Assembly: GCA_903918595.1 (NCBI GenBank)
Contig: CAIXFB010000301.1
Coordinates: forward strand, 1-38,561
Length of the DNA: 38,561 nucleotides
Source of the DNA: an uncultured Actinomycetes bacterium
GTDB taxonomy: Bacteria; Actinomycetota; Actinomycetes; S36-B12
Reading direction: 5' to 3'
The notes under the pieces were generated by a model, which saw nothing but the letters and a program-made list of their open reading frames with translations, was not told the DNA's origin and made no database searches. Position 1 is the stretch's first letter. Every line of letters begins with the position of its first letter. Positions 1,080-29,848 of this stretch are shown piece by piece. The translations under genes and the position numbers were made by a program.

Positions 1080-2320
1080 CCGACCAGCTCAAGAACTTGT
1101 TTGTTCGGTTGTTGACTCCTGTGCAAGGAAACACCTGCCGTGACCACCGCCAATATCAACAGCATGCCTGTAACAGAGGGGCTCATCCACTGATTACGGG
1201 GCTCGGTGATGCCCGTAACAAGATAGGCAGCAATAATTGCCAAAGGGCCTGCAAGACCCCTTCGTGCTGCCAAGATCGCGATAGCCACACCGAGAGCAAT
1301 TGCGGCAAATTGGGTCAGGAATCCAATGAGTCCATATCGAGCCAATTCATCGATGTAGAGGTTGTGTGCGTGACCAAACTCCTGGGTTATCCCACCGCTG
1401 ACGGACACTCCGGAGGAGCCGACCCCCACGATAGGGGATGTCCTCCAAAGCTCGAGAAATGCCGGCCAAAATGCGTTTCTTCCAGTTGCGCCCGCCTGCC
1501 ACATGTACATAAAGACCGCGCCGGCAGCAAGAACTAGGAGACCGCCCACGAAACGAACGCTCTGAGGAACCTTTGCAAAAAAGCCCTCTCGGGCAAACAT
1601 GACGAGTATGACGATTCCCGTTGCAGCGGCGCCTATGGACGCTCGACCGCTTGTGATCAGGAGTGTAAAAACGCCGACGGAAAGAAATACCCAGCTTGAC
1701 TTCGTCCGGTGAGCGATAGCGATAACAATGAGAAAGGCCCCCATCATCGCGGTATCCCCATTGTGACCAAAAGGACCAGGCCACCTGCCTTCTATCCCCA
1801 TAAGGTCATTGAAAGGTAGAAAATATCGGGCTTCATCAAAGTCAATAACAAACTGCGCTTGCGCCTTGATGGCAAGAATTCCCAGCATCTCGAGCACTCG
1901 CGTAACGATGAGGATAAGCGTTACTGCCCAGGCGAAAGCAAAAATCGAGCTCCAGGCATCACGAACTGTAGGTGGCTTCCACCAGATCATGAGCAAAATC
2001 GGCACGTAGAGCAATGCCGTGTAATTAAAGGCATCACCGTGGATGCGATACAAAATCAGGTGAGCCAGCCAAGCGATGGACATCAAGATAAGAAAACTTG
2101 TTAACCAAGCGCCTGCGCGTTCCCTGGCCGGCACTCGTAGCCATGCCATGAAGGACACAGCGAAAACAACAAAAAAAAGCAGGATGTTTGCTGACTGCCC
2201 ACGATAGAGGGGCTCTTCGAACCAGAGGTAGTTTGCGAACTGGGAGAGCACGATCCCTACGGAGAGGACGCTCAGGTAGACAGACGGAAGCTGGGATCGG
2301 GAAAGCTCCGTCGTCTTCAC
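1076..2320 (-). CDS. O-antigen ligase/polymerase (Wzy/WaaL-like) family membrane protein
   Basis: 414 aa, multi-TM. Region GVGSSGVSVSGGITQEFGHAHNLYIDELARYGLIGFLTQFAAI is typical of the O-antigen ligase family (H-N-x-Y...G..G). Confidence 0.8.
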   Translation of the reverse strand: MKTTELSRSQLPSVYLSVLSVGIVLSQFANYLWFEEPLYRGQSANILLFFVVFAVSFMAWLRVPARERAGAWLTSFLILMSIAWLAHLILYRIHGDAFNYTALLYVPILLMIWWKPPTVRDAWSSIFAFAWAVTLILIVTRVLEMLGILAIKAQAQFVIDFDEARYFLPFNDLMGIEGRWPGPFGHNGDTAMMGAFLIVIAIAHRTKSSWVFLSVGVFTLLITSGRASIGAAATGIVILVMFAREGFFAKVPQSVRFVGGLLVLAAGAVFMYMWQAGATGRNAFWPAFLELWRTSPIVGVGSSGVSVSGGITQEFGHAHNLYIDELARYGLIGFLTQFAAIALGVAIAILAARRGLAGPLAIIAAYLVTGITEPRNQWMSPSVTGMLLILAVVTAGVSLHRSQQPNKQVLELVG

Positions 2321-2439
2321 GGCTCTTAGTCTAAGACCCTTCTTCTTTATGTTCTGTGGGCTCTAGGTGCCAAACACTGGTTCTTTCCTTCCCTAGAATG
2401 GATAGGACGCGGTCGGGCAGTTAGCGACCTAAGGGTGAG

Positions 2440-3930
2440 GTGGGGAGGGTTATGGAACCGAGCTTGCCTTTGTCGTATCAGGAGCGTTATCAGTCCTCGA
2501 TAGGAAGCGGCTCAAGCGCATCGGATGGCCCCACTGACCGGATCATGACGCCCTATCGCAGTCGCTTGATAGTGAGCGATTCGGTGATGATCACCGTGGC
2601 TATCGGTATTGGTCTGTTGATCAGTTCCCGACAATCCGAATGGGCAATCGACCCAACCCTGGCAATTTACGGCACACCCTTTTTGATTGGTGTGCTCTGG
2701 CTTGCTCTACTTCTTGTGCGAGGTTCATACAACCGGCGGGTGATCGGTGTGGGTAGCGAAGAGGTGCGTCTTGCGCTTTCGGCCACGCTGATTCTCTTTG
2801 CGATCGTTGCAGGCACCAGCTATTTGATTAGGGCAGATATTTCTAGAGCGTATGCCTTTGTGGCGCTTCCACTTGGATTATTGCTGATCGCAATTTCTCG
2901 ATTTAGTTGGCGGCAGTGGCTCTACCGAAAGAGGCAAGAAGGACAGTTCCTTTCGAGGATTATTGTCATTGGCTCTGATCGAACTGCGCCCCTTCTGGCT
3001 GAAAAACTCGATCAAGAAAGCTTCGCCGGGTACCACGTTGTGGCTCTGATGAATCTTCCGGTCGATTCTCTGTCAACCTCCAAAAATCTTAAGGAGTGGC
3101 TCACTGCCGTAATGGACGCTATCGAAGAACAGGGCGCGTCAGCTGTCGCAATAGACCCGGGTGATGACGCATCATATGACGTGATCCGGCAACTCTCATG
3201 GCGCCTAGAAGGCAGAAATATTGATCTCTTGATTTCTCCGGGTTCACTAGACATTGCCGGACCTCGATTGAGCGTTAGGCCAGCTGCCGGCTTACCCCTT
3301 CTGCACCTTGATGAGGTATCGCTATCCCGTTCTCAACGTGCGATAAAGAGAATGCTTGACGTCACAGGATCTCTCATAGGGATCGCACTGCTCAGTCCGG
3401 TCATGATCAGCTGTGCTCTAGCTGTTCGCTTCACATCACATGGCCCAGTGGTTTATCGGCAAATGCGTGTAGGGCGAGGAGGTGAGATCTTCAGCATGTA
3501 TAAATTCCGAACGATGCGCGATAGGGCGGAACTGGAAATTGAATCCCTTCGAGATCAGCACGATCTCGAAGAGCCCATGTTCAAGTTGATAAACGATCCG
3601 CGGGTGACGCGGGTTGGCGGGTTCCTTCGGCGTTGGTCTCTCGATGAACTTCCCCAGTTATTTAATGTGTTGGGGGGATCGATGAGTTTGGTCGGCCCGC
3701 GCCCGCACCCTCTTGATGATGTTGACAGGTATCAGAGCGAAGCTTTCAGGCGACTTGCGTTGAAACCAGGAATGACTGGGATTTGGCAGGTTGAGGGTAG
3801 ATCCAACCTCACCTGGGATCAGGCACTTCAGATGGATTTGCATTACGTTGAAAAATGGTCACTTGAGTCGGACATTTACCTACTTGCCAAGACAACAAAA
3901 GCGGTTATTAGCAAAAGCGGTGCGGCTTAG
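2440..3930 (+). CDS. Exopolysaccharide polyprenyl-phosphate sugar-1-phosphate transferase (WcaJ/CpsE/WbaP-like), initiating enzyme
   Basis: C-terminal motif KRMLDVTGSLIGIALLSPVM...YRQMRVGRGGEIFSMYKFRTM...RRWSLDELPQLFNVLGGSMSLVGPRPHP...LKPGMTGIWQVEGRS. N-terminal TM and CoA-binding-like region. Start may be ATG 2452. Confidence 0.93.
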   Translation: MGRVMEPSLPLSYQERYQSSIGSGSSASDGPTDRIMTPYRSRLIVSDSVMITVAIGIGLLISSRQSEWAIDPTLAIYGTPFLIGVLWLALLLVRGSYNRRVIGVGSEEVRLALSATLILFAIVAGTSYLIRADISRAYAFVALPLGLLLIAISRFSWRQWLYRKRQEGQFLSRIIVIGSDRTAPLLAEKLDQESFAGYHVVALMNLPVDSLSTSKNLKEWLTAVMDAIEEQGASAVAIDPGDDASYDVIRQLSWRLEGRNIDLLISPGSLDIAGPRLSVRPAAGLPLLHLDEVSLSRSQRAIKRMLDVTGSLIGIALLSPVMISCALAVRFTSHGPVVYRQMRVGRGGEIFSMYKFRTMRDRAELEIESLRDQHDLEEPMFKLINDPRVTRVGGFLRRWSLDELPQLFNVLGGSMSLVGPRPHPLDDVDRYQSEAFRRLALKPGMTGIWQVEGRSNLTWDQALQMDLHYVEKWSLESDIYLLAKTTKAVISKSGAA

Positions 3931-5849
3931 AGACCGAGCAATTCAGCTTGGCTGGCGAATTCAGCGGATTGCGCTCGCACCTCAGCAAAGGTGCCTTGTG
4001 CTGTGATTGCCCCCTTCTCCATGTAGTACAGGCGATCGACTTCTCGCACCGTGGCCAGCCGGTGCGCGATGGTGATCGTGGTGACGTCGCCTTCAAGATC
4101 TCGAAGCGTCGCCACGATTGCTTGCTCGGTCTCGGCATCTAGGGCGCTTGTTGCTTCATCAAGGACTAGCAGGCGGGGCCTGGTATAAAGAGCCCGAGCA
4201 ATCCCCAAGCGCTGGCGTTGCCCGCCGGATAATTTGAACCCTCGTTCGCCAATCCAGGTATTGAGCCCCTCACGCTCTTCATCGAGAAATCCAGCCAGAT
4301 GGGCCCTTCTGAGGGCATCCAGCACGAGTGAATCATCGATCAAATAATCTGGTAGCCCTAAGGCGACATTCTGTTTAACGGTGCCGGCCACCAAGGCCAC
4401 ATTTTGTGGCACATATGCGATACCCCCGGGCCAGCGCTCAATTGCCTCATGCGGGCGTAATCCCCCAATGAGGACCCTTCCGTCATCTGGGCGCAGAACC
4501 CCGAGCACGACATCTGCCAAAGTAGATTTGCCCGCACCCGTAGAGCCCACAAAAGCCGCAGAGCTCCCTGCTGGCACTTCCAGACAGATATCGGCGAGGA
4601 CTGGTTCCCGAGCATCTGAGAAGGTTAGAAAAACGTTCTCGACACGCACTGTGGCTGCGAGATCTGGGTAGCCCTGCTCGATCCGATCGTGAATGTGTTG
4701 AGTCAAGACAACGGCATCTGCTTGAGCTGGTTGGGCGGGTGTGGATTGCAACTGGTCATACATAAAGAACGTGGGCTGCGCCATCACGGCAGCATTGCGA
4801 ATAGTGATGCCCGCACCTTGCAGCCGCAGCATGGAAGGGATAACCCGTGAACCGGCTGCAAGGAAGAGAGCGGTAGTTGTTGCTGCCGCCGACCAGTCTT
4901 TAGTCAGGAACTGCACGATACCGAGCAGCAACACACCTAGGTAAAGGGCTACCTCGAGCACATATTTCGGAAGCTCCATGATGAAGGCGTTTCCAGCACT
5001 CGCACCGGCATATCGGGTGACTACTCCCTCATAACGCGCAACATACAACTCTCGTCGGTTAAGCACCGTTGCCTCGCGGTACGTTGAAAGCGCCTCTGCA
5101 ACAGCACTCAATGTATCTATAGAGGAGTCCTTGATTATGGCGGCATTGCGGGAGGACCAGTGGGTGAGAACCTTGTGTAGAACCAGAACGACGAGTGTGA
5201 AAAATACTGCGCTGACCAATGTCAGGATCGGATCGAAGAAAAGCAAACTGACGCCAATAATGGTGAAAAGGAATACCTCCGAGGCGATGATGATTGCTGA
5301 ACCAAGTAGGGAAACAGTTGCCGCCCCCGCCCCCTGACCAAGGGCGTAGGTGGCCTCTGACGTGGTCCAGCGTTGCACCTCAGACAGCGGCCTTTGCAGA
5401 AATGCTCTAGCCAGCGCGACTGAGAGATCGGCCTGGCGATTTGCTAGGAATCGGGTCATGATGCGTGTCATGACGGCGCTCAAAATCGTCTTCGCAACCA
5501 GAACCGTCACGGCCAGCAATGCAATGGTCACGCTCAATTGAGAGATGCTCAAGTTTTCGAGTCCGAGGAAATTGAGGAGTGACTGAGCCCAATCTGGTAG
5601 AGAGCCGGGGGCAATCCCCGATACTGCCACTGCCGCAACAAGGCCTACCAGCGCAATACCCAACAGGTCGAGCAAACCTAATGAAAGCTGGACGATCGCA
5701 CCGAAGTACAACAGATGCCTTTTACCCTCAGGCAGAAGTTCCGTTCCCTTACGAACTGCCCAGAGAAGGCTTGGCTTACCAAAATCCGCATAATTCAAGC
5801 TTCCATTGCCGGGATTGTCATCACTCAAGACTGGTTCGACCTCTGACAC
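3927..5849 (-). CDS. ABC transporter, fused permease + ATPase (MsbA/PglK-like glycolipid flippase)
   Basis: Walker A GSTGAGKST, signature LSGGQRQRLGIARAL, Walker B LLVLDEATSALD, N-terminal TM domain. Confidence 0.93.
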   Translation of the reverse strand: MSEVEPVLSDDNPGNGSLNYADFGKPSLLWAVRKGTELLPEGKRHLLYFGAIVQLSLGLLDLLGIALVGLVAAVAVSGIAPGSLPDWAQSLLNFLGLENLSISQLSVTIALLAVTVLVAKTILSAVMTRIMTRFLANRQADLSVALARAFLQRPLSEVQRWTTSEATYALGQGAGAATVSLLGSAIIIASEVFLFTIIGVSLLFFDPILTLVSAVFFTLVVLVLHKVLTHWSSRNAAIIKDSSIDTLSAVAEALSTYREATVLNRRELYVARYEGVVTRYAGASAGNAFIMELPKYVLEVALYLGVLLLGIVQFLTKDWSAAATTTALFLAAGSRVIPSMLRLQGAGITIRNAAVMAQPTFFMYDQLQSTPAQPAQADAVVLTQHIHDRIEQGYPDLAATVRVENVFLTFSDAREPVLADICLEVPAGSSAAFVGSTGAGKSTLADVVLGVLRPDDGRVLIGGLRPHEAIERWPGGIAYVPQNVALVAGTVKQNVALGLPDYLIDDSLVLDALRRAHLAGFLDEEREGLNTWIGERGFKLSGGQRQRLGIARALYTRPRLLVLDEATSALDAETEQAIVATLRDLEGDVTTITIAHRLATVREVDRLYYMEKGAITAQGTFAEVRAQSAEFASQAELLGL

Positions 5850-7507: not shown

Positions 7508-8380
7508 TCAGGCCGCGAGTGCGGCCTGTGTGTGGATGGTCTCAAACTCGATCGGGGTGAGTTTGCCGAGGCCTCGTTGGCGCCTGCGGTGGTGGTAGGT
7601 CCGTTCGATCCAGGTGATGATCGCGAGGCGGAGTTCCTCGCGCGTTGTCCACTGTCACCGGTTGAGGACGTTCTTTTGCAGGAGCGCGAAGAAGGACTCC
7701 ATTGCGTCGTTGTCTCCGGCTTATGCGACGCGGCCCATGGATCCGACCAGTCCGTTGTTGCGCAGGGTCATGGAGAACTTCTTGGACCTGAACTGGCCGC
7801 CTCTGTCGCTATGAACGATCGTGCCGGCTGGGCGGCCCCGCAGCATGATCGCCATCCGCAGCGCCTCGACGGCCAGTTCCGAGGTCATCCGTGAGTCGAT
7901 CGCGTATCCGACGATGCGCCTAGAGGCGCAGTCCTTGATCGCGCAGAGGCAGATCTTGCCCTCGAGCTTCCAATGCTCGGTGATGTCGAGAAGCCACTTC
8001 ACGTTCACCGTCTCAGCGGTGAAGTCGCGCATCACATGATCGTCATGCACCGCAGGCCCGGCCTTCTTCCCCGAGCCGCGGCGCTTGATGATGGTGGAGG
8101 AAATCCCCTGAAACGAACACACCCGTTGGACACGGTTCTCGCCAACGTGAAGGCCCTTCGCATGGATCAGCTCATCAGCGATGAGCCGGTATCCGAACTC
8201 TGGGTCATCAGCGTGGACGCCCATGGTGGCGTTGATCAGATGTGCGTCATCCCAGTCCCGCTGGGACACCGGGCTCCGGCGCCAGTCGTAATACGCCGTC
8301 GTAGAAAACACCAGCACCCGACACGACACCGTGATCGGGATTCCCTCGAAAGCGAGATCACCGACGAGGGGATACATCAT
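7508..8380 (-). pseudogene. IS3-family transposase OrfB (DDE integrase core) with two in-frame stops
   Basis: MYPLVGDLAFEGIPITVSCRVL...WLLDITEHWKLEGKICLCAIKDCASRRIVGYAIDSRM...IVHSDRGGQFRS...GSMGRVA*AGDNDAMESFFALLQKNVLNR*QWTTREELRLAIITWIERTYHHRRRQRGLGKLTPIEFETIHTQAALAA*. Stops TAA 7721-7723 and TGA 7655-7657. Confidence 0.85.
7510..7527. terminator. Perfect 7-bp hairpin at 3' end of IS transposase gene
   Basis: AGGCCGC-GAGT-GCGGCCT overlaps the OrfB stop codon. Terminator role is inferred; no U tract. Confidence 0.3.
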
Positions 8381-8958: not shown

Positions 8959-9867
8959 TCAGGCGCGACCAAGAGTGATCCAGTTTGGGGGTAATAAATC
9001 TCGTTCGTTGAAGTTTGGGTCATCCAGCCAAGGTCTAGGGCAGATCACCATTCTGTCCTCATTATCTCCGATCCACGCAGACCACCAGCTAAAACTGCTA
9101 TTTGCAGTGATGAGGTTATGTGCGGAGCTCATCAGAAGCAGTGACTCCAACGGGGAACTTTCGGAAGGAGGCTCAATAAATTGGATTAAACTTGGGGTTA
9201 ATTGCAAAGCAGCCATACTTTTGGCAGCTTCGATGTCATCCGAAAAAACTAACAGAGGGCCGGAGTTTACATTCAGACGTAGCAGCCGGAGTGCGCGTGA
9301 GTAATAGTCATCCTGCGCTAGCCCCATATTTGATAGCCCAACGTAATTACCTCGTCGAACATGAATTGCAGACCAAACAGGGAGAGCATTCAGAGCGTCA
9401 AAGGTTTCAAGAAACCAGTGTGATGGATTTACTGGATTACGAACTTCTTCTCGTATAGCGGCAGCATGACGATCAAAGTACAGGTGTGATTGAAAGTAGC
9501 CGCGTATTGTTGTTCCGTCCGGAATCTTATTTATTCGAGTATCGAATACAGTGGATTCCTCTATCGCATAATTTTGGGACCCGAATCTTGGCTTCATACC
9601 TATTCGCCTGAAGCCACGCCGACTCCAGTCGGATCCCCGCCGAATCAATTCCTTCGGAAACCGGGCTGACTCTGAGATTGACAACTGACTGTGAAAAGTC
9701 TGGAGCTCAAAATTATGCCATTCGTAATTTCTAAAGTTTCGCAGATCAACCTGTAGATCAGTATTGAGATCAATTGCTCTAGCGCGGCCTGTGGCATATA
9801 CAAAGAGCTGATTTCCTAAGCCTCCGAGTGGTTCAATATAGATTGTCACTTCCGAATTAACCTCCAT
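8959..9867 (-). CDS. GT11-family alpha-1,2-fucosyltransferase-like glycosyltransferase (fucosyl or colitosyl)
   Basis: GGLGNQLFVYATGRARA, IHVRRGNYV, LVFSDDIEAAKSM, SSAHNLITANSSFSWWSAWIGDNEDRMVICPRPWLDD: hallmark GT11 motifs. Confidence 0.92.
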   Translation of the reverse strand: MEVNSEVTIYIEPLGGLGNQLFVYATGRARAIDLNTDLQVDLRNFRNYEWHNFELQTFHSQLSISESARFPKELIRRGSDWSRRGFRRIGMKPRFGSQNYAIEESTVFDTRINKIPDGTTIRGYFQSHLYFDRHAAAIREEVRNPVNPSHWFLETFDALNALPVWSAIHVRRGNYVGLSNMGLAQDDYYSRALRLLRLNVNSGPLLVFSDDIEAAKSMAALQLTPSLIQFIEPPSESSPLESLLLMSSAHNLITANSSFSWWSAWIGDNEDRMVICPRPWLDDPNFNERDLLPPNWITLGRA

Positions 9868-10016
9868 TCAAACAATTAGGGTTCGTCGGACAAACTTTAT
9901 CGCTTACCTCGAAAGTTAATCAGATTGCGCTCACTGCATGGATCCAATACTGTAGGTTTCTCCAAAAGCAATATCAAAGTCTCTCAGTAGACCTCTAATT
10001 TAGACTCTACCCGATC

Positions 10017-10997
10017 GTGCGAAAAGGCAAAACATTGAAAATTAGAGCCATTCCGAGCCGTTCTGATTACAAGGTTCTTGTAACGGGAGGCTCTGGTTTA
10101 GTGGGTGCTGCAGTTGTCCGATATCTAAGATCTCTCGATATGCAGGTGATCGCTCCTTCTCACCGTGAGTTAAACCTGATGAACGGAGAGGCTACTCGCG
10201 ATTTTTTCGATAATTGCCGACCGCAAATAGTTGTTGCCTGTGCTGCTCGTGTGGGAGGCATCGCCGCCAACATAGCGAACCCAGTTGATTTTTTAGTGGA
10301 AAATTTGGCAATTCAAAATAGTACGTTTCTCGCAGCGGCAGATGCCGAGGTTTCACAATTCGTTTTTATGGCGAGTTCATGTATTTTCCCTCGCAATGCT
10401 CCGCAGCCAATGTCTGAATCGCAGCTCATGACGGGTTTACTCGAACCAACTAATGAGTCTTATGCAATCGCCAAATTAGCTGGCATCCAGCTTGCAAAGG
10501 CACTCAAGCAGGAGGGGAGACTTTCGACTAATGTTTTGGTCCCATGTAATGTATATGGCCCTGAGGACAACTTTAATCTCGAAAAGGCTCATGTAACCTC
10601 TGCTCTGGTGAGGAAGTTCGTTGACGCCGTTGATGAGAGAGACAAATTTGTGTCAGTTTGGGGCACAGGAACTGCTCGGCGTGAACTTATGCACAGCCAT
10701 GACCTAGCTTCGGCAGTGGCTCACGTTTTGAACAACGAGGATGTACCTTTCATTGCGAATGTAGGAACTGGCGTCGACCACTCAATCAAACAGTTGGCTG
10801 AATTAGTGGCTGAGCTATCAGGGTTTGACGGTGAAATAGTTTTTGACGACAGATTTCCTGATGGCATGCCTCAGAAAGTGCTGGATACGTCTGTTCTTGC
10901 CAACAGTGGGTGGCGAGCACAAGTGGGACTTAAAACCGGTGTTGCTGAACTAATTAAGACATACCGATCACTCATCACTGCCCAATTAAACAACTAG
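10017..10997 (+). CDS. GDP-L-fucose synthase / GDP-L-colitose synthase-like SDR (Fcl/ColC-like)
   Basis: VLVTGGSGLVGAAVV, VGGIAANIANPVDFLVENL, SSCIFPRNAPQPMSESQLMTGLLEPTNESYAIAKLAGI, VYGPEDNFNLEKAHVTSALVRKF, WGTGTARRELMHSHDLA. Confidence 0.88.
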   Translation: MRKGKTLKIRAIPSRSDYKVLVTGGSGLVGAAVVRYLRSLDMQVIAPSHRELNLMNGEATRDFFDNCRPQIVVACAARVGGIAANIANPVDFLVENLAIQNSTFLAAADAEVSQFVFMASSCIFPRNAPQPMSESQLMTGLLEPTNESYAIAKLAGIQLAKALKQEGRLSTNVLVPCNVYGPEDNFNLEKAHVTSALVRKFVDAVDERDKFVSVWGTGTARRELMHSHDLASAVAHVLNNEDVPFIANVGTGVDHSIKQLAELVAELSGFDGEIVFDDRFPDGMPQKVLDTSVLANSGWRAQVGLKTGVAELIKTYRSLITAQLNN

Positions 10998-11006
10998 GAG
11001 CCTCTA

Positions 11007-12287
11007 ATGTCAGATCAAGAATTACGCGAACTTCTCCGGGCAAAAATGTTGGAGATACCCACTGCATTTAATGTGGACAATCCCCGGTACTGGTTTCCCC
11101 TAGCCACTGTTTCCTATGGGGTAGATGAAGTGATGCAGGCAGTGGAATCAATGACGAGTTTTCGAACAAGCATGTGGAACAAGACCCGACTTTTCGAGGA
11201 ACAATTCGGCACTCGATATTCCAGCCAAGCAGTCATGGTGAATAGCGGCTCTTCAGCAGACTTTTTGTTAGTTTTGTCGCAAATGGAGAATTCTGGTGGA
11301 AAATTACATCCTGGCGATGAAGTGTGTGTCCCAGCAGTGACTTGGCCCACTCACATATGGTCGGTTTTAATGGCAGGGCTGACTCCTGTCCTCATCGATG
11401 TAGACCCAGCTACCTTGAATATGTCGATGGATGATCTCCAGCGAAAGTTGACCCCGAATACGCGAGCGATCTTCCCAGTCCATTTGATGGGAAACCCAGC
11501 CCCCATGGATCAGATTCTGGAGATTGCCTCGGCTTCAGAAGCCATAATTCTCGAGGACTGTTGCGAAGCTCTGGGAGCAACGTGGCAAGGAAAATCGGTT
11601 GGAACCTTTGGCGCGGGCGGGTCATTCTCATTTTTCTTCAGTCACCATATCACCACCATGGAAGGTGGCATGGTTCTAACGCCTCATGAGGAAATTGCAG
11701 AGCGCATTCGTCTCTTGCGAGCACATGGATGGTCCAGAAATCTAAGGAACCCGGAGGCGGTATTGGGAGAGACCAATGGTGAGTTTTCAGGGCTTGATTC
11801 CCGATATACGTTTATCGAGTGGGGATTGAACGTTCGACCAACTGAATTGCAGGCGGGCTTCGGTATTGAGCAATTGAGGCGACTTGACGGATTTGAGTAC
11901 TGCCGAAAGCGCAATTTTGACTTGTTTGTCAGGCTTCTCGAAGAAACCGGCATGGCTACCTTCTTTACACTGCCAACAGTTGATCGGAGAGCTACTCCCA
12001 GTTGGTTTGCGCTGCCCTTGTTGCTTTCAGACTTGTTGCCGTACTCTCGAGATTCATTAACTGAGTTTCTCGATGACAATGGAATCGAGACACGCCCAAT
12101 CGTTGCGGGAAATCTAGCTCGACATCCGGTGCGAGCTAGATTCCCCTCCGTGTTTTCGGGAGTATTCCCGGGTGCCGATATTGTACACAATCGCGGTTTC
12201 TATGTTGGTCTCTATCCTGAACCAATGGATGAGCTTCTTGAAAGGTTTGTTGGGCTGTTGCTTGAATTTCATAAGCGTAATGTTTGA
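11007..12287 (+). CDS. DegT/DnrJ/EryC1/StrS-fold PLP enzyme with Lys-to-His substitution; ColD/E1-type sugar 3-dehydratase-like
   Basis: NSGSSADFLLV, HPGDEVCVPAVTWPTHIWSVLMAGLTPVLIDVD, EDCCEALGATWQGKSVGTFGAGGSFSFFFSHHITTMEGG. The schiff-base lysine position (SFxxxK) is H213 here. Confidence 0.85.
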   Translation: MSDQELRELLRAKMLEIPTAFNVDNPRYWFPLATVSYGVDEVMQAVESMTSFRTSMWNKTRLFEEQFGTRYSSQAVMVNSGSSADFLLVLSQMENSGGKLHPGDEVCVPAVTWPTHIWSVLMAGLTPVLIDVDPATLNMSMDDLQRKLTPNTRAIFPVHLMGNPAPMDQILEIASASEAIILEDCCEALGATWQGKSVGTFGAGGSFSFFFSHHITTMEGGMVLTPHEEIAERIRLLRAHGWSRNLRNPEAVLGETNGEFSGLDSRYTFIEWGLNVRPTELQAGFGIEQLRRLDGFEYCRKRNFDLFVRLLEETGMATFFTLPTVDRRATPSWFALPLLLSDLLPYSRDSLTEFLDDNGIETRPIVAGNLARHPVRARFPSVFSGVFPGADIVHNRGFYVGLYPEPMDELLERFVGLLLEFHKRNV

Positions 12288-21233: not shown

Positions 21234-22118
21234 ATGGTCAGCCAGTGCTGGTATCCTTCTCACGTGTCATTGACAGAGATAAATCTCGTCGACTCGTATT
21301 TTGCAAACGATGACTATTGCGTTGCTGGAGTCCTTTCGGACAGTATTGTGTGGCGGCGAGGAAATCACTTAGGCACTTTGCCCACGGTTATTACGCACGA
21401 AGACATGTATCGATATAATTATCATTCTGTTCCCAAATCCAAGAGGTTCGGGCTTCTTCTTGAATCACAGAGCATCGTTCCTCGCGTGTATTCCCGTGTG
21501 AGGAAAGTTATCCCTGACTATGAGATGGTCTTCACGCACAGTGAGAAGCTTTTAGAAGACTTCGAAAATACTCGCTGGATTCCGGGTGGTGGCATTTGGA
21601 TCGGCGGGACTTATGCAGGAGGACAAATTGGAGTGATCCCGAAGTCCCTGATGGTCTCAATGCTCACTTCGAACAAGTTGCAAACTCCACTTCATCGGCG
21701 CCGGTATCTGTGGGCATTGTGGTTGGAAAGCACAAAACTCAACGTCGATGTGTACAGGCAACATTGGCGAACTAATGCAAGAATTTCTACCTACGACACT
21801 CTCCGCGATTACAGGTATTCTATCGTCATTGAAAACTTCATTGATGACCGCTACTTCACTGAGAAGTTGTTGAATTGCTTTGCTACAGGCACTGTCCCGA
21901 TTTATCTTGGCGCCCGGAATCTTGATCATTTTTTCGATCCTGGTGGCTTTATCTCCTTCAATGGCTGGCGCGATCTGAGAAGAATCATTCCCAGCCTTAG
22001 TGAGAATGACTATTTGAGCCGCTTACCTGCAATTCACGCAAATCTTAAAAAAGCTCTCGAGTTTCGGTCAATTGAGGATTACATTTTTAACAATTACTTA
22101 GAGGGTAGGTCAGGCTGA
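21234..22118 (+). CDS. GT10-family (alpha-1,3/4-fucosyltransferase-like) glycosyltransferase
   Basis: YRYSIVIENFIDDRYFTEKLLNCFATGTVPIYLGARNLDHFFDPGGFISF: GT10 C-terminal donor-binding motif. Confidence 0.85.
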   Translation: MVSQCWYPSHVSLTEINLVDSYFANDDYCVAGVLSDSIVWRRGNHLGTLPTVITHEDMYRYNYHSVPKSKRFGLLLESQSIVPRVYSRVRKVIPDYEMVFTHSEKLLEDFENTRWIPGGGIWIGGTYAGGQIGVIPKSLMVSMLTSNKLQTPLHRRRYLWALWLESTKLNVDVYRQHWRTNARISTYDTLRDYRYSIVIENFIDDRYFTEKLLNCFATGTVPIYLGARNLDHFFDPGGFISFNGWRDLRRIIPSLSENDYLSRLPAIHANLKKALEFRSIEDYIFNNYLEGRSG

Positions 22119-27904: not shown

Positions 27905-29128
27905 TTAGATCCGAGAATCCAACGACGCTGAAGGAGCAACCACTTGAAATCCTGGAACGATAGCTGCAATCTCTTTCCGCAGTTCGTTTACGTTCACTTT
28001 CGAATCGGAATGATCGATCCAATAACTTATTTGACTCAGTAGCGGCTCAACGACGACGGATTCGTTGTTCCGTATGAGGCCAAGATCCTCCGTCCAACTA
28101 ACCAGTGTCTCTTCGGACTGCAGAAATTCCTCTTGCTTCTTCTCACCTGTCGTATCACGAGGAGTGCAGACGAGGGGGTACTCGTCTTGGGCATAGTTAG
28201 TTGGGGAAGTGATGGTTGGGTCTTGGTTCCATGTTTCCATTGAGATTGAGACAGGAGTTTTACCGTGGAAAGCTAAAAAGTTGCGGGCAAGGTCGATGAG
28301 GCTGATCGGCTGCACTAAGGGTGTATCGGGAATGACGATTGATCGATCTACTGCAGTGACCGCATTGGCACATATAAGTCCGGATTCCTCAGGTGTGACG
28401 AAGTATCGATAAGTATCCAGGGGCGCACTGAGCGGTTCACTCCTTGCAATTCGATCAAGCCAAGATTCCGTGATTGAACCGGAGGAGAATAAAACATTCG
28501 CAAAACGAGCGCTCGTACAATGACCCGTGTACGCCCACAACATGCTTTCCATGATCAATTTACTCGCACCCATCATGCTGGTAGGACGGGCGGCCTTGTC
28601 GGTGCTTACTGCGAAAACCTGTGGGGGGGAATCCATTTCACCAAGTGCCTCTAGAAGTAGCTTTGTTCCTCTCACATTGACATCGAGAATACGCAAAGCT
28701 GAAGCAGTGTCACGCTCAGTCCGGACATGCTTGACTGCGGCGAAATGCAACACCAAATCTAGATCTCCCATTTCGCGAATTGCACGCCGGATCAGCGGCG
28801 AAGTCACGTCAGCCAGAACCATGTAAATTTCTGTTGGATGCCCCTGGCGGCGAGTCGCGACGAGTTTTCGAGCTAAGGCCGCCAACCCGTTTTCTGAAGA
28901 ATCAAGAAGATAAATCCGCTTTGGCCCAGTCGCCAGCACATGTGGAAGCGTTGATTGGGCAATAAAACCGGCTGCACCAGTGATCAATAAAGACGAGCCT
29001 TGACAGATTCCTGTAAACTTAAGATGTTGCTCAGGACGAAGAGCAAATAAGTTGCCGTTCGGACGATTCACACAGGACGCCGACAACTTCTCGAGGTCAA
29101 CGGTATGGATAGTGTACATCAACTTCAA
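27905..29128 (-). CDS. CapD/FlaA1-like polysaccharide biosynthesis SDR (NDP-sugar dehydratase/epimerase)
   Basis: LLITGAAGFIAQSTLPHVLATGPKRIYLLDSSENGL...HFAAVKHVRTERDTASALRILDVNVRGTKLLLEAL...VSTDKAARPTSMMGASKLIMESML...GSITESWLDRI. Confidence 0.88.
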   Translation of the reverse strand: MKLMYTIHTVDLEKLSASCVNRPNGNLFALRPEQHLKFTGICQGSSLLITGAAGFIAQSTLPHVLATGPKRIYLLDSSENGLAALARKLVATRRQGHPTEIYMVLADVTSPLIRRAIREMGDLDLVLHFAAVKHVRTERDTASALRILDVNVRGTKLLLEALGEMDSPPQVFAVSTDKAARPTSMMGASKLIMESMLWAYTGHCTSARFANVLFSSGSITESWLDRIARSEPLSAPLDTYRYFVTPEESGLICANAVTAVDRSIVIPDTPLVQPISLIDLARNFLAFHGKTPVSISMETWNQDPTITSPTNYAQDEYPLVCTPRDTTGEKKQEEFLQSEETLVSWTEDLGLIRNNESVVVEPLLSQISYWIDHSDSKVNVNELRKEIAAIVPGFQVVAPSASLDSRI

Positions 29129-29143
29129 TCTGGGAGGGCTAGG

Positions 29144-29848
29144 GTGGGAGAGCGGGCTGTAATTCTAGCGGGCGGCCAAGGCCGGCGTCTTGCACCGTAT
29201 ACAGCGATCCTTCCTAAACCTCTCATGCCCGTTTCCGAAGATGAATCCATCATTGAGCATTTGCTTAGGGGTGTTGCATCTGCAGGCATCTCTGAGGTTA
29301 CGATCACGTTGGGTCACTTGGGCCACCTGATAGAGGCGGTGGTGGGGAACGGCAAACGGTTTGGATTGCGAATCGATTACACACGGGAAGACAAACCGCT
29401 TGGAACGGCGGGTCCATTGGCACTCGTGCGCGGGGTCACGGCAGAAGACAGCATTTTAGTTATCAATGGCGATACTTTCACAAATCTTGATTTCCGTGAA
29501 GTCTTGAACAGGCTCAATGAATCTACTGAGGCCGTAATCACTTGCGTTGAGCGGCGTCTTGACTCTAATTATGGTGTTGTTCATTTTGACGAAAGGGGGT
29601 TAATGTCCGCTTACGACGAAAAGCCTTCTTTTGGCTTTGTAGTTAGTACGGGGATTTACGGATTGCGGGGCAGCGCTCTTGATTGTATCCAACCCAATGA
29701 ACGTTTAGATATGCCGGATTTACTCAGGACTTTACGGGCAAGGGGTCGAAGTGTGGTTTGCTTTCTAGCCGAATGTGAATGGAAAGACTTGGGACGCCCA
29801 GCGGATTTCGAGGAACTGCATCAGCAACGATCGACCGAGTCAAGTTAA
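29144..29848 (+). CDS. Sugar-1-phosphate nucleotidyltransferase (GCD1/HddC/RmlA-like)
   Basis: VGERAVILAGGQGRRLAPYTAILPKPLMPVSEDESIIEHLLRG...YTREDKPLGTAGPLALV...VINGDTFTNLDF. ORF track start 29105; GTG 29144 follows a GGGAGG ribosome-binding-like site. Confidence 0.92.
   Translation: MGERAVILAGGQGRRLAPYTAILPKPLMPVSEDESIIEHLLRGVASAGISEVTITLGHLGHLIEAVVGNGKRFGLRIDYTREDKPLGTAGPLALVRGVTAEDSILVINGDTFTNLDFREVLNRLNESTEAVITCVERRLDSNYGVVHFDERGLMSAYDEKPSFGFVVSTGIYGLRGSALDCIQPNERLDMPDLLRTLRARGRSVVCFLAECEWKDLGRPADFEELHQQRSTESS

What the first reader, a model, noticed from the sequence alone, without database searches (positions are those of the whole stretch)
8959..12287. Possible colitose-type sugar cassette: GT11 + Fcl/ColC-like SDR + His-substituted ColD-like enzyme
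The three genes sit together. GDP-L-colitose is made from GDP-4-keto-6-deoxymannose by ColD (3-dehydratase) then ColC (an Fcl-like epimerase/reductase), and the known colitosyltransferase WbgN of E. coli O55 is a GT11 protein. The usual Fcl partner Gmd is absent from the window, and a His-type DegT protein occupies that place. A 3,6-dideoxy sugar in a Gram-positive glycan would be notable. Plain GDP-fucose with an unrelated DegT enzyme is the alternative.
Basis: inference. Interest (0 to 1): 0.62.

Follow-up and report, generated by a model that had tools for sequence, protein, structure and literature searches.

The report
Colitose-type sugar genes in an actinobacterium
Two adjacent genes in this environmental actinobacterium most likely make a rare sugar, colitose (fucose lacking one oxygen), known mainly from the surface sugars of Gram-negative bacteria; they belong to an apparently undescribed enzyme lineage found in many phyla, including one relative in which the two enzymes are fused into one protein.

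Summary
The DegT protein has the ColD dehydratase signature (S212-H213 in place of the PLP lysine, no [2Fe-2S] cysteines), and ColD is its closest solved relative by sequence and fold. A bona fide gmd lies elsewhere in the genome (contig C239). The window SDR is the genome's only full Fcl homologue. It falls in a 98/94-supported clade of Fcl-like SDRs from several phyla, all next to orthologues of this DegT; a Pelagibacteraceae genome carries both as one 732-aa fusion directly after gmd. All 32 fucose-type Fcls examined have Thr164; all 12 SDRs of this lineage and all 8 of the ColC lineage do not (mostly Cys). So the colitose reading is supported: Gmd -> C3-dehydratase -> C5-epimerase/C4-reductase -> GDP-L-colitose. 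It is a different lineage from E. coli ColC/ColD, though one common SDR clade is not rejected (AU p=0.29). GT11 cannot decide colitose versus fucose, and a GT10 gene also lies in the locus. No biochemistry exists, so the product is inferred.

The parts
11007..12287 (+). His-type DegT, ColD-like PLP/PMP-dependent nucleotide-sugar C3-dehydratase (426 aa) with an N-terminal extension of about 28 residues
   Evidence: PF01041; ColD best in PDB by sequence and fold; S212-H213, RAHGW, no Fe-S cysteines
10017..10997 (+). Fcl-like SDR, predicted C5-epimerase/C4-reductase of the DegT product (ColC-like step)
   Evidence: NF047922 333 bits; Ser107/Cys109/Tyr136/Lys140/His179 kept, Thr164 replaced by Cys; DegT-coupled clade
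8959..9867 (-). GT11 glycosyltransferase, candidate colitosyl- or fucosyltransferase, divergent from the SDR-DegT pair
   Evidence: PF01531; 31.5% identity to WbgN of E. coli O55; only GT11 of the genome
10998..11006 (+). 9-base gap between the SDR stop and the DegT ATG; an AGGAG ribosome-binding sequence spans the SDR stop and this gap
   Evidence: sequence read
21234..22118 (+). GT10-type glycosyltransferase, tentative second user of the GDP-L-sugar
   Evidence: PF00852 46.3 bits, cut-off 23.9; GT10 genes also lie near the cassette in L087, L088, L091, L093, L096
29105..29848 (+). short nucleotidyltransferase, weak candidate for the GDP-mannose source
   Evidence: best NCBIfam model mannose-1-phosphate guanylyltransferase 122.7 bits, cut-off 440

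Best explanation
The SDR-DegT pair makes GDP-L-colitose (or a very close 3,6-dideoxy-L-hexose) for a surface polysaccharide. Gmd, encoded on contig C239, turns GDP-mannose into GDP-4-keto-6-deoxymannose. The DegT protein, using PMP regenerated from glutamate and His213 as acid/base, removes the C3 hydroxyl and then loses the amine by hydrolysis, as ColD does. The Fcl-like SDR epimerises C5 with its Cys/His pair and reduces C4 with NAD(P)H. GT11, perhaps also the GT10 gene, adds the sugar to the glycan assembled by this locus. Shown here: gene content, signatures, conserved pairing, one fusion, gmd in the genome. Inferred: the chemistry, the product, and which transferase uses it.
For: ColD-type active site without Fe-S cysteines, ColD first by sequence and fold (feature definitions from PMC8987622). 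gmd present in the genome. Only full Fcl homologue of the genome. SDR-DegT pair conserved in several phyla, SDR clade made only of DegT-paired members (98/94). SDR-DegT fusion after gmd in L092. Thr164 lost in all 20 SDRs of the two DegT-coupled lineages, kept in all 32 fucose-type Fcls. Epimerase Cys/His and reductase triad kept. GT11 or GT10 genes beside the cassette in several loci.
Against: The SDR is closer to Fcl than to ColC, and at the columns that separate Fcl from ColC it matches Fcl 9 times and ColC 3 times. The DegT-paired sister L097 keeps Thr164. gmd is not in the same cluster here. No canonical ManC was found in a 90% complete assembly. The fusion rests on one genome. No enzyme of this lineage has been assayed.
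Confidence: 0.74

Rival explanations
1. The SDR is an ordinary (or dual-substrate) GDP-L-fucose synthase feeding GT11 and GT10, and the DegT enzyme works separately or competes for the same intermediate to make a minor 3-deoxy sugar.
For: SDR is nearer to Fcl than ColC in identity and at most diagnostic columns. It is the only Fcl of a genome that carries GT11 and GT10, both classed as fucosyltransferase families.
Against: Strict pairing with DegT across phyla, the L092 fusion, and loss of Thr164. GT11 enzymes accept colitose as well as fucose (PMC11987014).
Confidence: 0.14
2. The cassette makes a GDP-3,6-dideoxy-heptose, as in Campylobacter jejuni capsules, rather than a hexose.
For: C. jejuni C3-dehydratases acting on GDP-6-deoxy-4-keto-heptose are 62-67% identical to ColD (PMC10440746), so substrate size cannot be read from the family; Fcl-like C4-reductases serve there too.
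Against: The genome's Gmd passes the GDP-mannose model, and no HddC-type guanylyltransferase stands out among its five PF00483 proteins. In that pathway epimerase and reductase are separate proteins, whereas here one SDR keeps both catalytic sets.
Confidence: 0.05
3. The DegT protein removes the C3 hydroxyl but the sugar is finished differently (no C5 epimerisation), giving a D-configured 3,6-dideoxyhexose such as a GDP-linked tyvelose epimer.
For: Product stereochemistry cannot be read from sequence with certainty.
Against: The epimerase pair Cys109/His179 is kept throughout the lineage, and the GT11/GT10 families found beside the cassette use GDP-beta-L-sugars.
Confidence: 0.04
4. The DegT protein is an aminotransferase making a 4-amino sugar (perosamine type), unrelated to the SDR.
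For: PF01041 is mainly an aminotransferase family.
Against: Catalytic Lys replaced by His with the dehydratase Ser before it; perosamine synthases score far lower (E 6e-44 against 6e-67 for ColD).
Confidence: 0.02

Closest known systems
ColD / ColC colitose pathway of E. coli O55 and O111 and Y. pseudotuberculosis
   Same: DegT enzyme with the Ser-His signature and no Fe-S motif, adjacent Fcl-family SDR with the same catalytic residues, Cys at SDR position 164, gmd in the genome, GT11 nearby (as in O55)
   Different: 35% identity to ColD and 33-35% to ColC; both proteins fall in separate well-supported clades; DegT carries an N-terminal extension; gene order is SDR then DegT without gmd in the same cluster; host is an actinobacterium
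GDP-L-fucose synthase (Fcl/WcaG, GFS)
   Same: Same fold (TM 0.94 to E. coli Fcl) and catalytic residues; 40% identity
   Different: Thr164 replaced by Cys, Pro182 by Ser, Trp311 lost; always paired with a His-type DegT in its clade
E1 / RfbH (CDP-4-keto-6-deoxyglucose 3-dehydratase)
   Same: Same superfamily and His in place of Lys
   Different: No [2Fe-2S] cysteine motif in the window protein; separate clade (100/100)
WbgN, alpha-1,2-colitosyltransferase of E. coli O55 (GT11)
   Same: Same family; 31.5% identity over nearly the whole length
   Different: Donor cannot be assigned from family: WbgN and FUT2 both use GDP-colitose, GDP-fucose and GDP-L-galactose (PMC11987014)
GDP-3,6-dideoxy-heptose pathway of C. 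jejuni HS:5/HS:11
   Same: GDP-linked 4-keto-6-deoxy sugar, ColD-like C3-dehydratase, then C5 epimerisation and C4 reduction
   Different: Seven-carbon substrate, separate epimerase and reductase proteins

Membership tests
ColD (GDP-4-keto-6-deoxymannose 3-dehydratase) | His in place of the PLP-binding Lys, preceded by Ser (ColD S187-H188) | tested here: met
   S212-H213, invariant in all 16 aligned proteins
ColD (GDP-4-keto-6-deoxymannose 3-dehydratase) | No [2Fe-2S] cysteine motif (hydrolytic, not E3-dependent) | tested here: met
   no C.C motif; RfbH-type relatives have DWGRDCYC-type motifs
ColD (GDP-4-keto-6-deoxymannose 3-dehydratase) | Member of the ColD clade | tested here: not met
   ColD clade 100/100 excludes it; window protein in another clade, 97/90 with 16 rows
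ColD (GDP-4-keto-6-deoxymannose 3-dehydratase) | C3-dehydration of GDP-4-keto-6-deoxymannose | not testable with these tools
   needs enzymology
ColC (GDP-L-colitose synthase) | Fcl-family SDR with reductase triad and epimerase Cys/His | tested here: met
   all five residues kept
ColC (GDP-L-colitose synthase) | Adjacent to a ColD-type gene | tested here: met
   9-base gap; conserved in relatives, fused in L092
ColC (GDP-L-colitose synthase) | Member of the ColC clade | tested here: inconclusive
   best tree places it elsewhere, but a joint clade with ColC is not rejected, AU p=0.29
GDP-L-fucose synthase (Fcl) | NF047922 equivalog score of at least 500 bits | tested here: not met
   333 bits; only 4 of 14 control genomes pass, so a weak test
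GDP-L-fucose synthase (Fcl) | Thr164, invariant in 32 gmd/fucose-type Fcls examined | tested here: not met
   Cys in the window protein
E1/RfbH | [2Fe-2S] cysteines and NF011936 cut-off of 423 bits | tested here: not met
   no cysteine motif; 266.7 bits
GT11 family | PF01531 cut-off of 23.9 bits | tested here: met
   59.2 bits
WbgN-type colitosyltransferase | Use of GDP-L-colitose as donor | not testable with these tools
   GT11 donors are promiscuous (PMC11987014)

The most novel reading that the evidence does not exclude
A second lineage of GDP-3,6-dideoxy-L-hexose synthesis, spread by horizontal transfer over several phyla including Actinomycetota, in which an Fcl was recruited independently of ColC. 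Both recruitments replaced Thr164 of the SDR. In one marine Pelagibacteraceae lineage the two enzymes are fused into one bifunctional GDP-colitose synthase, and GT10 as well as GT11 enzymes serve as colitosyltransferases.
Probability: 0.35. Interest if true: 0.62.

Novelty: new variant of a known kind. Interest (0 to 1): 0.5.

Why it matters
Colitose is known experimentally from Gram-negative O-antigens. A conserved, mobile colitose-type module in actinobacteria, Omnitrophota, Desulfobacterota and others would widen the range of 3,6-dideoxyhexoses in surface glycans. It suggests a simple sequence rule (SDR position 164 plus a neighbouring SHH-type DegT) to tell such genes from fucose genes, which annotation pipelines now lump as 'GDP-L-fucose synthase'. 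The natural fusion could be a convenient single enzyme for making GDP-colitose.

Tried and rejected
Aminotransferase (perosamine-type) reading: rejected, the catalytic Lys is His and the preceding residue is the dehydratase Ser. RfbH/E1 reading: rejected, no Fe-S cysteines. 'No gmd, so the pathway is broken': rejected. Firmly separate origin of this lineage and ColC: not claimed, AU p=0.29. GT11 as proof of colitose: rejected on published donor promiscuity. ManC beta-helix search PF22640 was negative, but Corynebacterium also gave no match, so it says little; PF00483 gave proteins that read as GlgC, GalU and GlmU, one unassigned protein and the window gene. A fusion search over 297 genomes of the L092 family found no second intact SDR-DegT fusion among the loci read; DegT proteins there carry SHQ and often follow gmd. 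PHROGs, plasmid and phage searches gave only distant homologues of the window proteins. The paper library gave no Gram-positive colitose glycan, but it lacks most subscription journals.

Full report
OBSERVATION. The window (contig C301 of the genome) holds GT11 8959-9867(-), an Fcl-like SDR 10017-10997(+) and a DegT protein 11007-12287(+). Family assignments are firm: PF01531; PF01370 with NF047922 as best NCBIfam model; PF01041. The DegT ATG follows the SDR stop by 9 bases with an AGGAG spanning the stop, so the two are probably a coupled pair; GT11 points the other way across a 149-base gap. The rest of the window is a surface-glycan locus: polyprenyl-phosphate sugar transferase, Wzy/ligase-like protein, two ABC exporters, GT2/GT4 genes, methyltransferases. 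The genome encodes five WhiB proteins, so the host is an actinobacterium.

GENOME CONTEXT. The genome (2.46 Mb, 439 contigs, 90% complete) has gmd on contig C239 at 2310-3314, over the TIGR01472 cut-off, followed by a second Gmd-like gene at 3333-4337 below it. The window SDR is the only full Fcl homologue, and the window GT11 the only GT11. No canonical ManC was found; the short nucleotidyltransferase at 29105-29848 is a weak candidate. In 395 genomes of the class only this genome and G279 gave a DegT match at E<=1e-70; in the 85 genomes of its family the best other hits are RfbH-type at 34-38% identity. Together with an IS3-type transposase fragment at 7721-8380 this suggests horizontal acquisition (inference).

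THE DEHYDRATASE. ColD is the closest solved protein (E 6e-67), and the predicted model (pLDDT 85) matches ColD first (2gms, E 5e-36). S212-H213 correspond to ColD S187-H188, the two positions changed in the ColD H188K S187N structure (3gr9, title). The protein keeps RAHGW and lacks the DWGRDCYC-type cysteines of the RfbH relatives. PMC8987622 gives these features as the distinction between ColD (hydrolytic, no Fe-S) and E1/SpnQ. The window enzyme and its orthologues share an N-terminal extension of about 28 residues that ColD lacks.

THE SDR. It keeps Ser107, Cys109, Tyr136, Lys140 and His179 of E. coli Fcl, equivalent to the reductase triad and epimerase pair of GDP-fucose synthase (PMC12362431); the model (pLDDT 91.6) matches E. 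coli Fcl with TM 0.94. In the trees it lies in a clade of ten (98/94), all next to a DegT orthologue, from Omnitrophota, Desulfobacterales, a delta- and a betaproteobacterium, Dormiibacterota and Acidimicrobiia. The Pelagibacteraceae rows join next (99/94). E. coli ColC, alphaproteobacterial gmd-fcl-degT operons and the actinobacterium G279 form a separate clade (100/98). Forcing the two DegT-coupled groups into one clade is not rejected (AU p=0.29), so independent recruitment is suggested, not shown. Position 164 is Thr in all 32 gmd/fucose-type Fcls, Cys/Ser/Ala in all 12 of the window lineage and Cys/Ser in all 8 of the ColC lineage. The synechococcal sister L097 keeps Thr although DegT-paired, so the rule is not absolute. 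The window SDR's own branch is long, so its exact place within the clade is unsure.

COUPLING. L092, a Pelagibacteraceae genome, encodes Fcl-like SDR and ColD-like DegT in one uninterrupted 732-aa frame, directly after gmd. This Rosetta-stone arrangement is the strongest sign that the two act in sequence. It rests on one genome; its relative L094/L183 has the two parts on different contigs. gmd lies next to or near the pair in L082, L090, L092 and L095.

TRANSFERASES. GT11 genes adjoin the cassette in L084 and L097 and occur in the colitose-type operons of Chelatococcus (L075) and G279. GT10 genes follow DegT in L087, L088, L091 and L096 and lie near it in L093, all over the Pfam cut-off, and the window has one at 21234-22118. 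Both families use GDP-beta-L-fucose-type donors, so the product should be an L-sugar of that shape; L-colitose is 3-deoxy-L-fucose. They cannot separate the two sugars: WbgN and FUT2 accept both (PMC11987014).

MECHANISM. Shown: gene content, signatures, pairing, one fusion, presence of gmd. Inferred: GDP-mannose -> GDP-4-keto-6-deoxymannose (Gmd) -> GDP-4-keto-3,6-dideoxymannose (DegT) -> GDP-L-colitose (SDR) -> glycan (GT11, perhaps GT10). The main rivals are a fucose-making or dual SDR with DegT on the side, and a heptose substrate as in C. jejuni (PMC10440746).

NOVELTY. ColC/ColD chemistry is known, and colitose genes have been sought across 12,939 genomes by homology (PMC7725333). New here, as far as the searched library shows, are the separate SDR/DegT lineage, its spread over phyla, the fusion and the shared change at position 164. 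It works like ColD/ColC; clade membership in ColD is not met and in ColC is inconclusive, so it is filed as a new variant of a known kind.

Noticed in passing
L092:6966-9161: Pelagibacteraceae genome with an Fcl-like SDR fused in frame to a ColD-like DegT (732 aa) directly after gmd.
   Followed up: yes
window 21234-22118: GT10-type (alpha-1,3-fucosyltransferase family) gene in the same locus, so two transferases of the fucose type share the window.
   Followed up: partly
L175:4946-9144 (genome G279): Another actinobacterium of the class has a compact SDR - DegT - gmd - GT11 cluster whose SDR and DegT belong to the ColC/ColD clades proper.
   Followed up: partly
L079:2508-7167 and L102:4276-10131: ColD-type DegT next to a two-gene thiamine-diphosphate dehydrogenase-like pair and an NAD(P) oxidoreductase: perhaps a branched 3,6-dideoxy GDP-sugar.
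   Followed up: no
L082:996-5947: RfbH- and RfbG-type genes with a thiamine-diphosphate enzyme sit just before the SDR-DegT cassette (yersiniose-like set).
   Followed up: no
L188-L206: Pelagibacteraceae genomes often carry, after gmd, a DegT with SHQ instead of SHH; still His at the catalytic site, so possibly another dehydratase type.
   Followed up: partly
L099:4274-7525 and L101:5839-9188: Thaumarchaeal genomes carry a ColD-type DegT with Gmd-like and Fcl-like genes, although PMC7725333 reports fucose and colitose pathways absent from the TACK group.
   Followed up: no
L009:2310-4337: Two tandem gmd paralogues on C239; the second (35% identical to the first) falls below the Gmd cut-off and its function is unclear.
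   Followed up: no
window 7721-8380: IS3-type transposase fragment (rve, HTH_21) just beyond the GT11 gene, a possible sign of recent gene movement.
   Followed up: no
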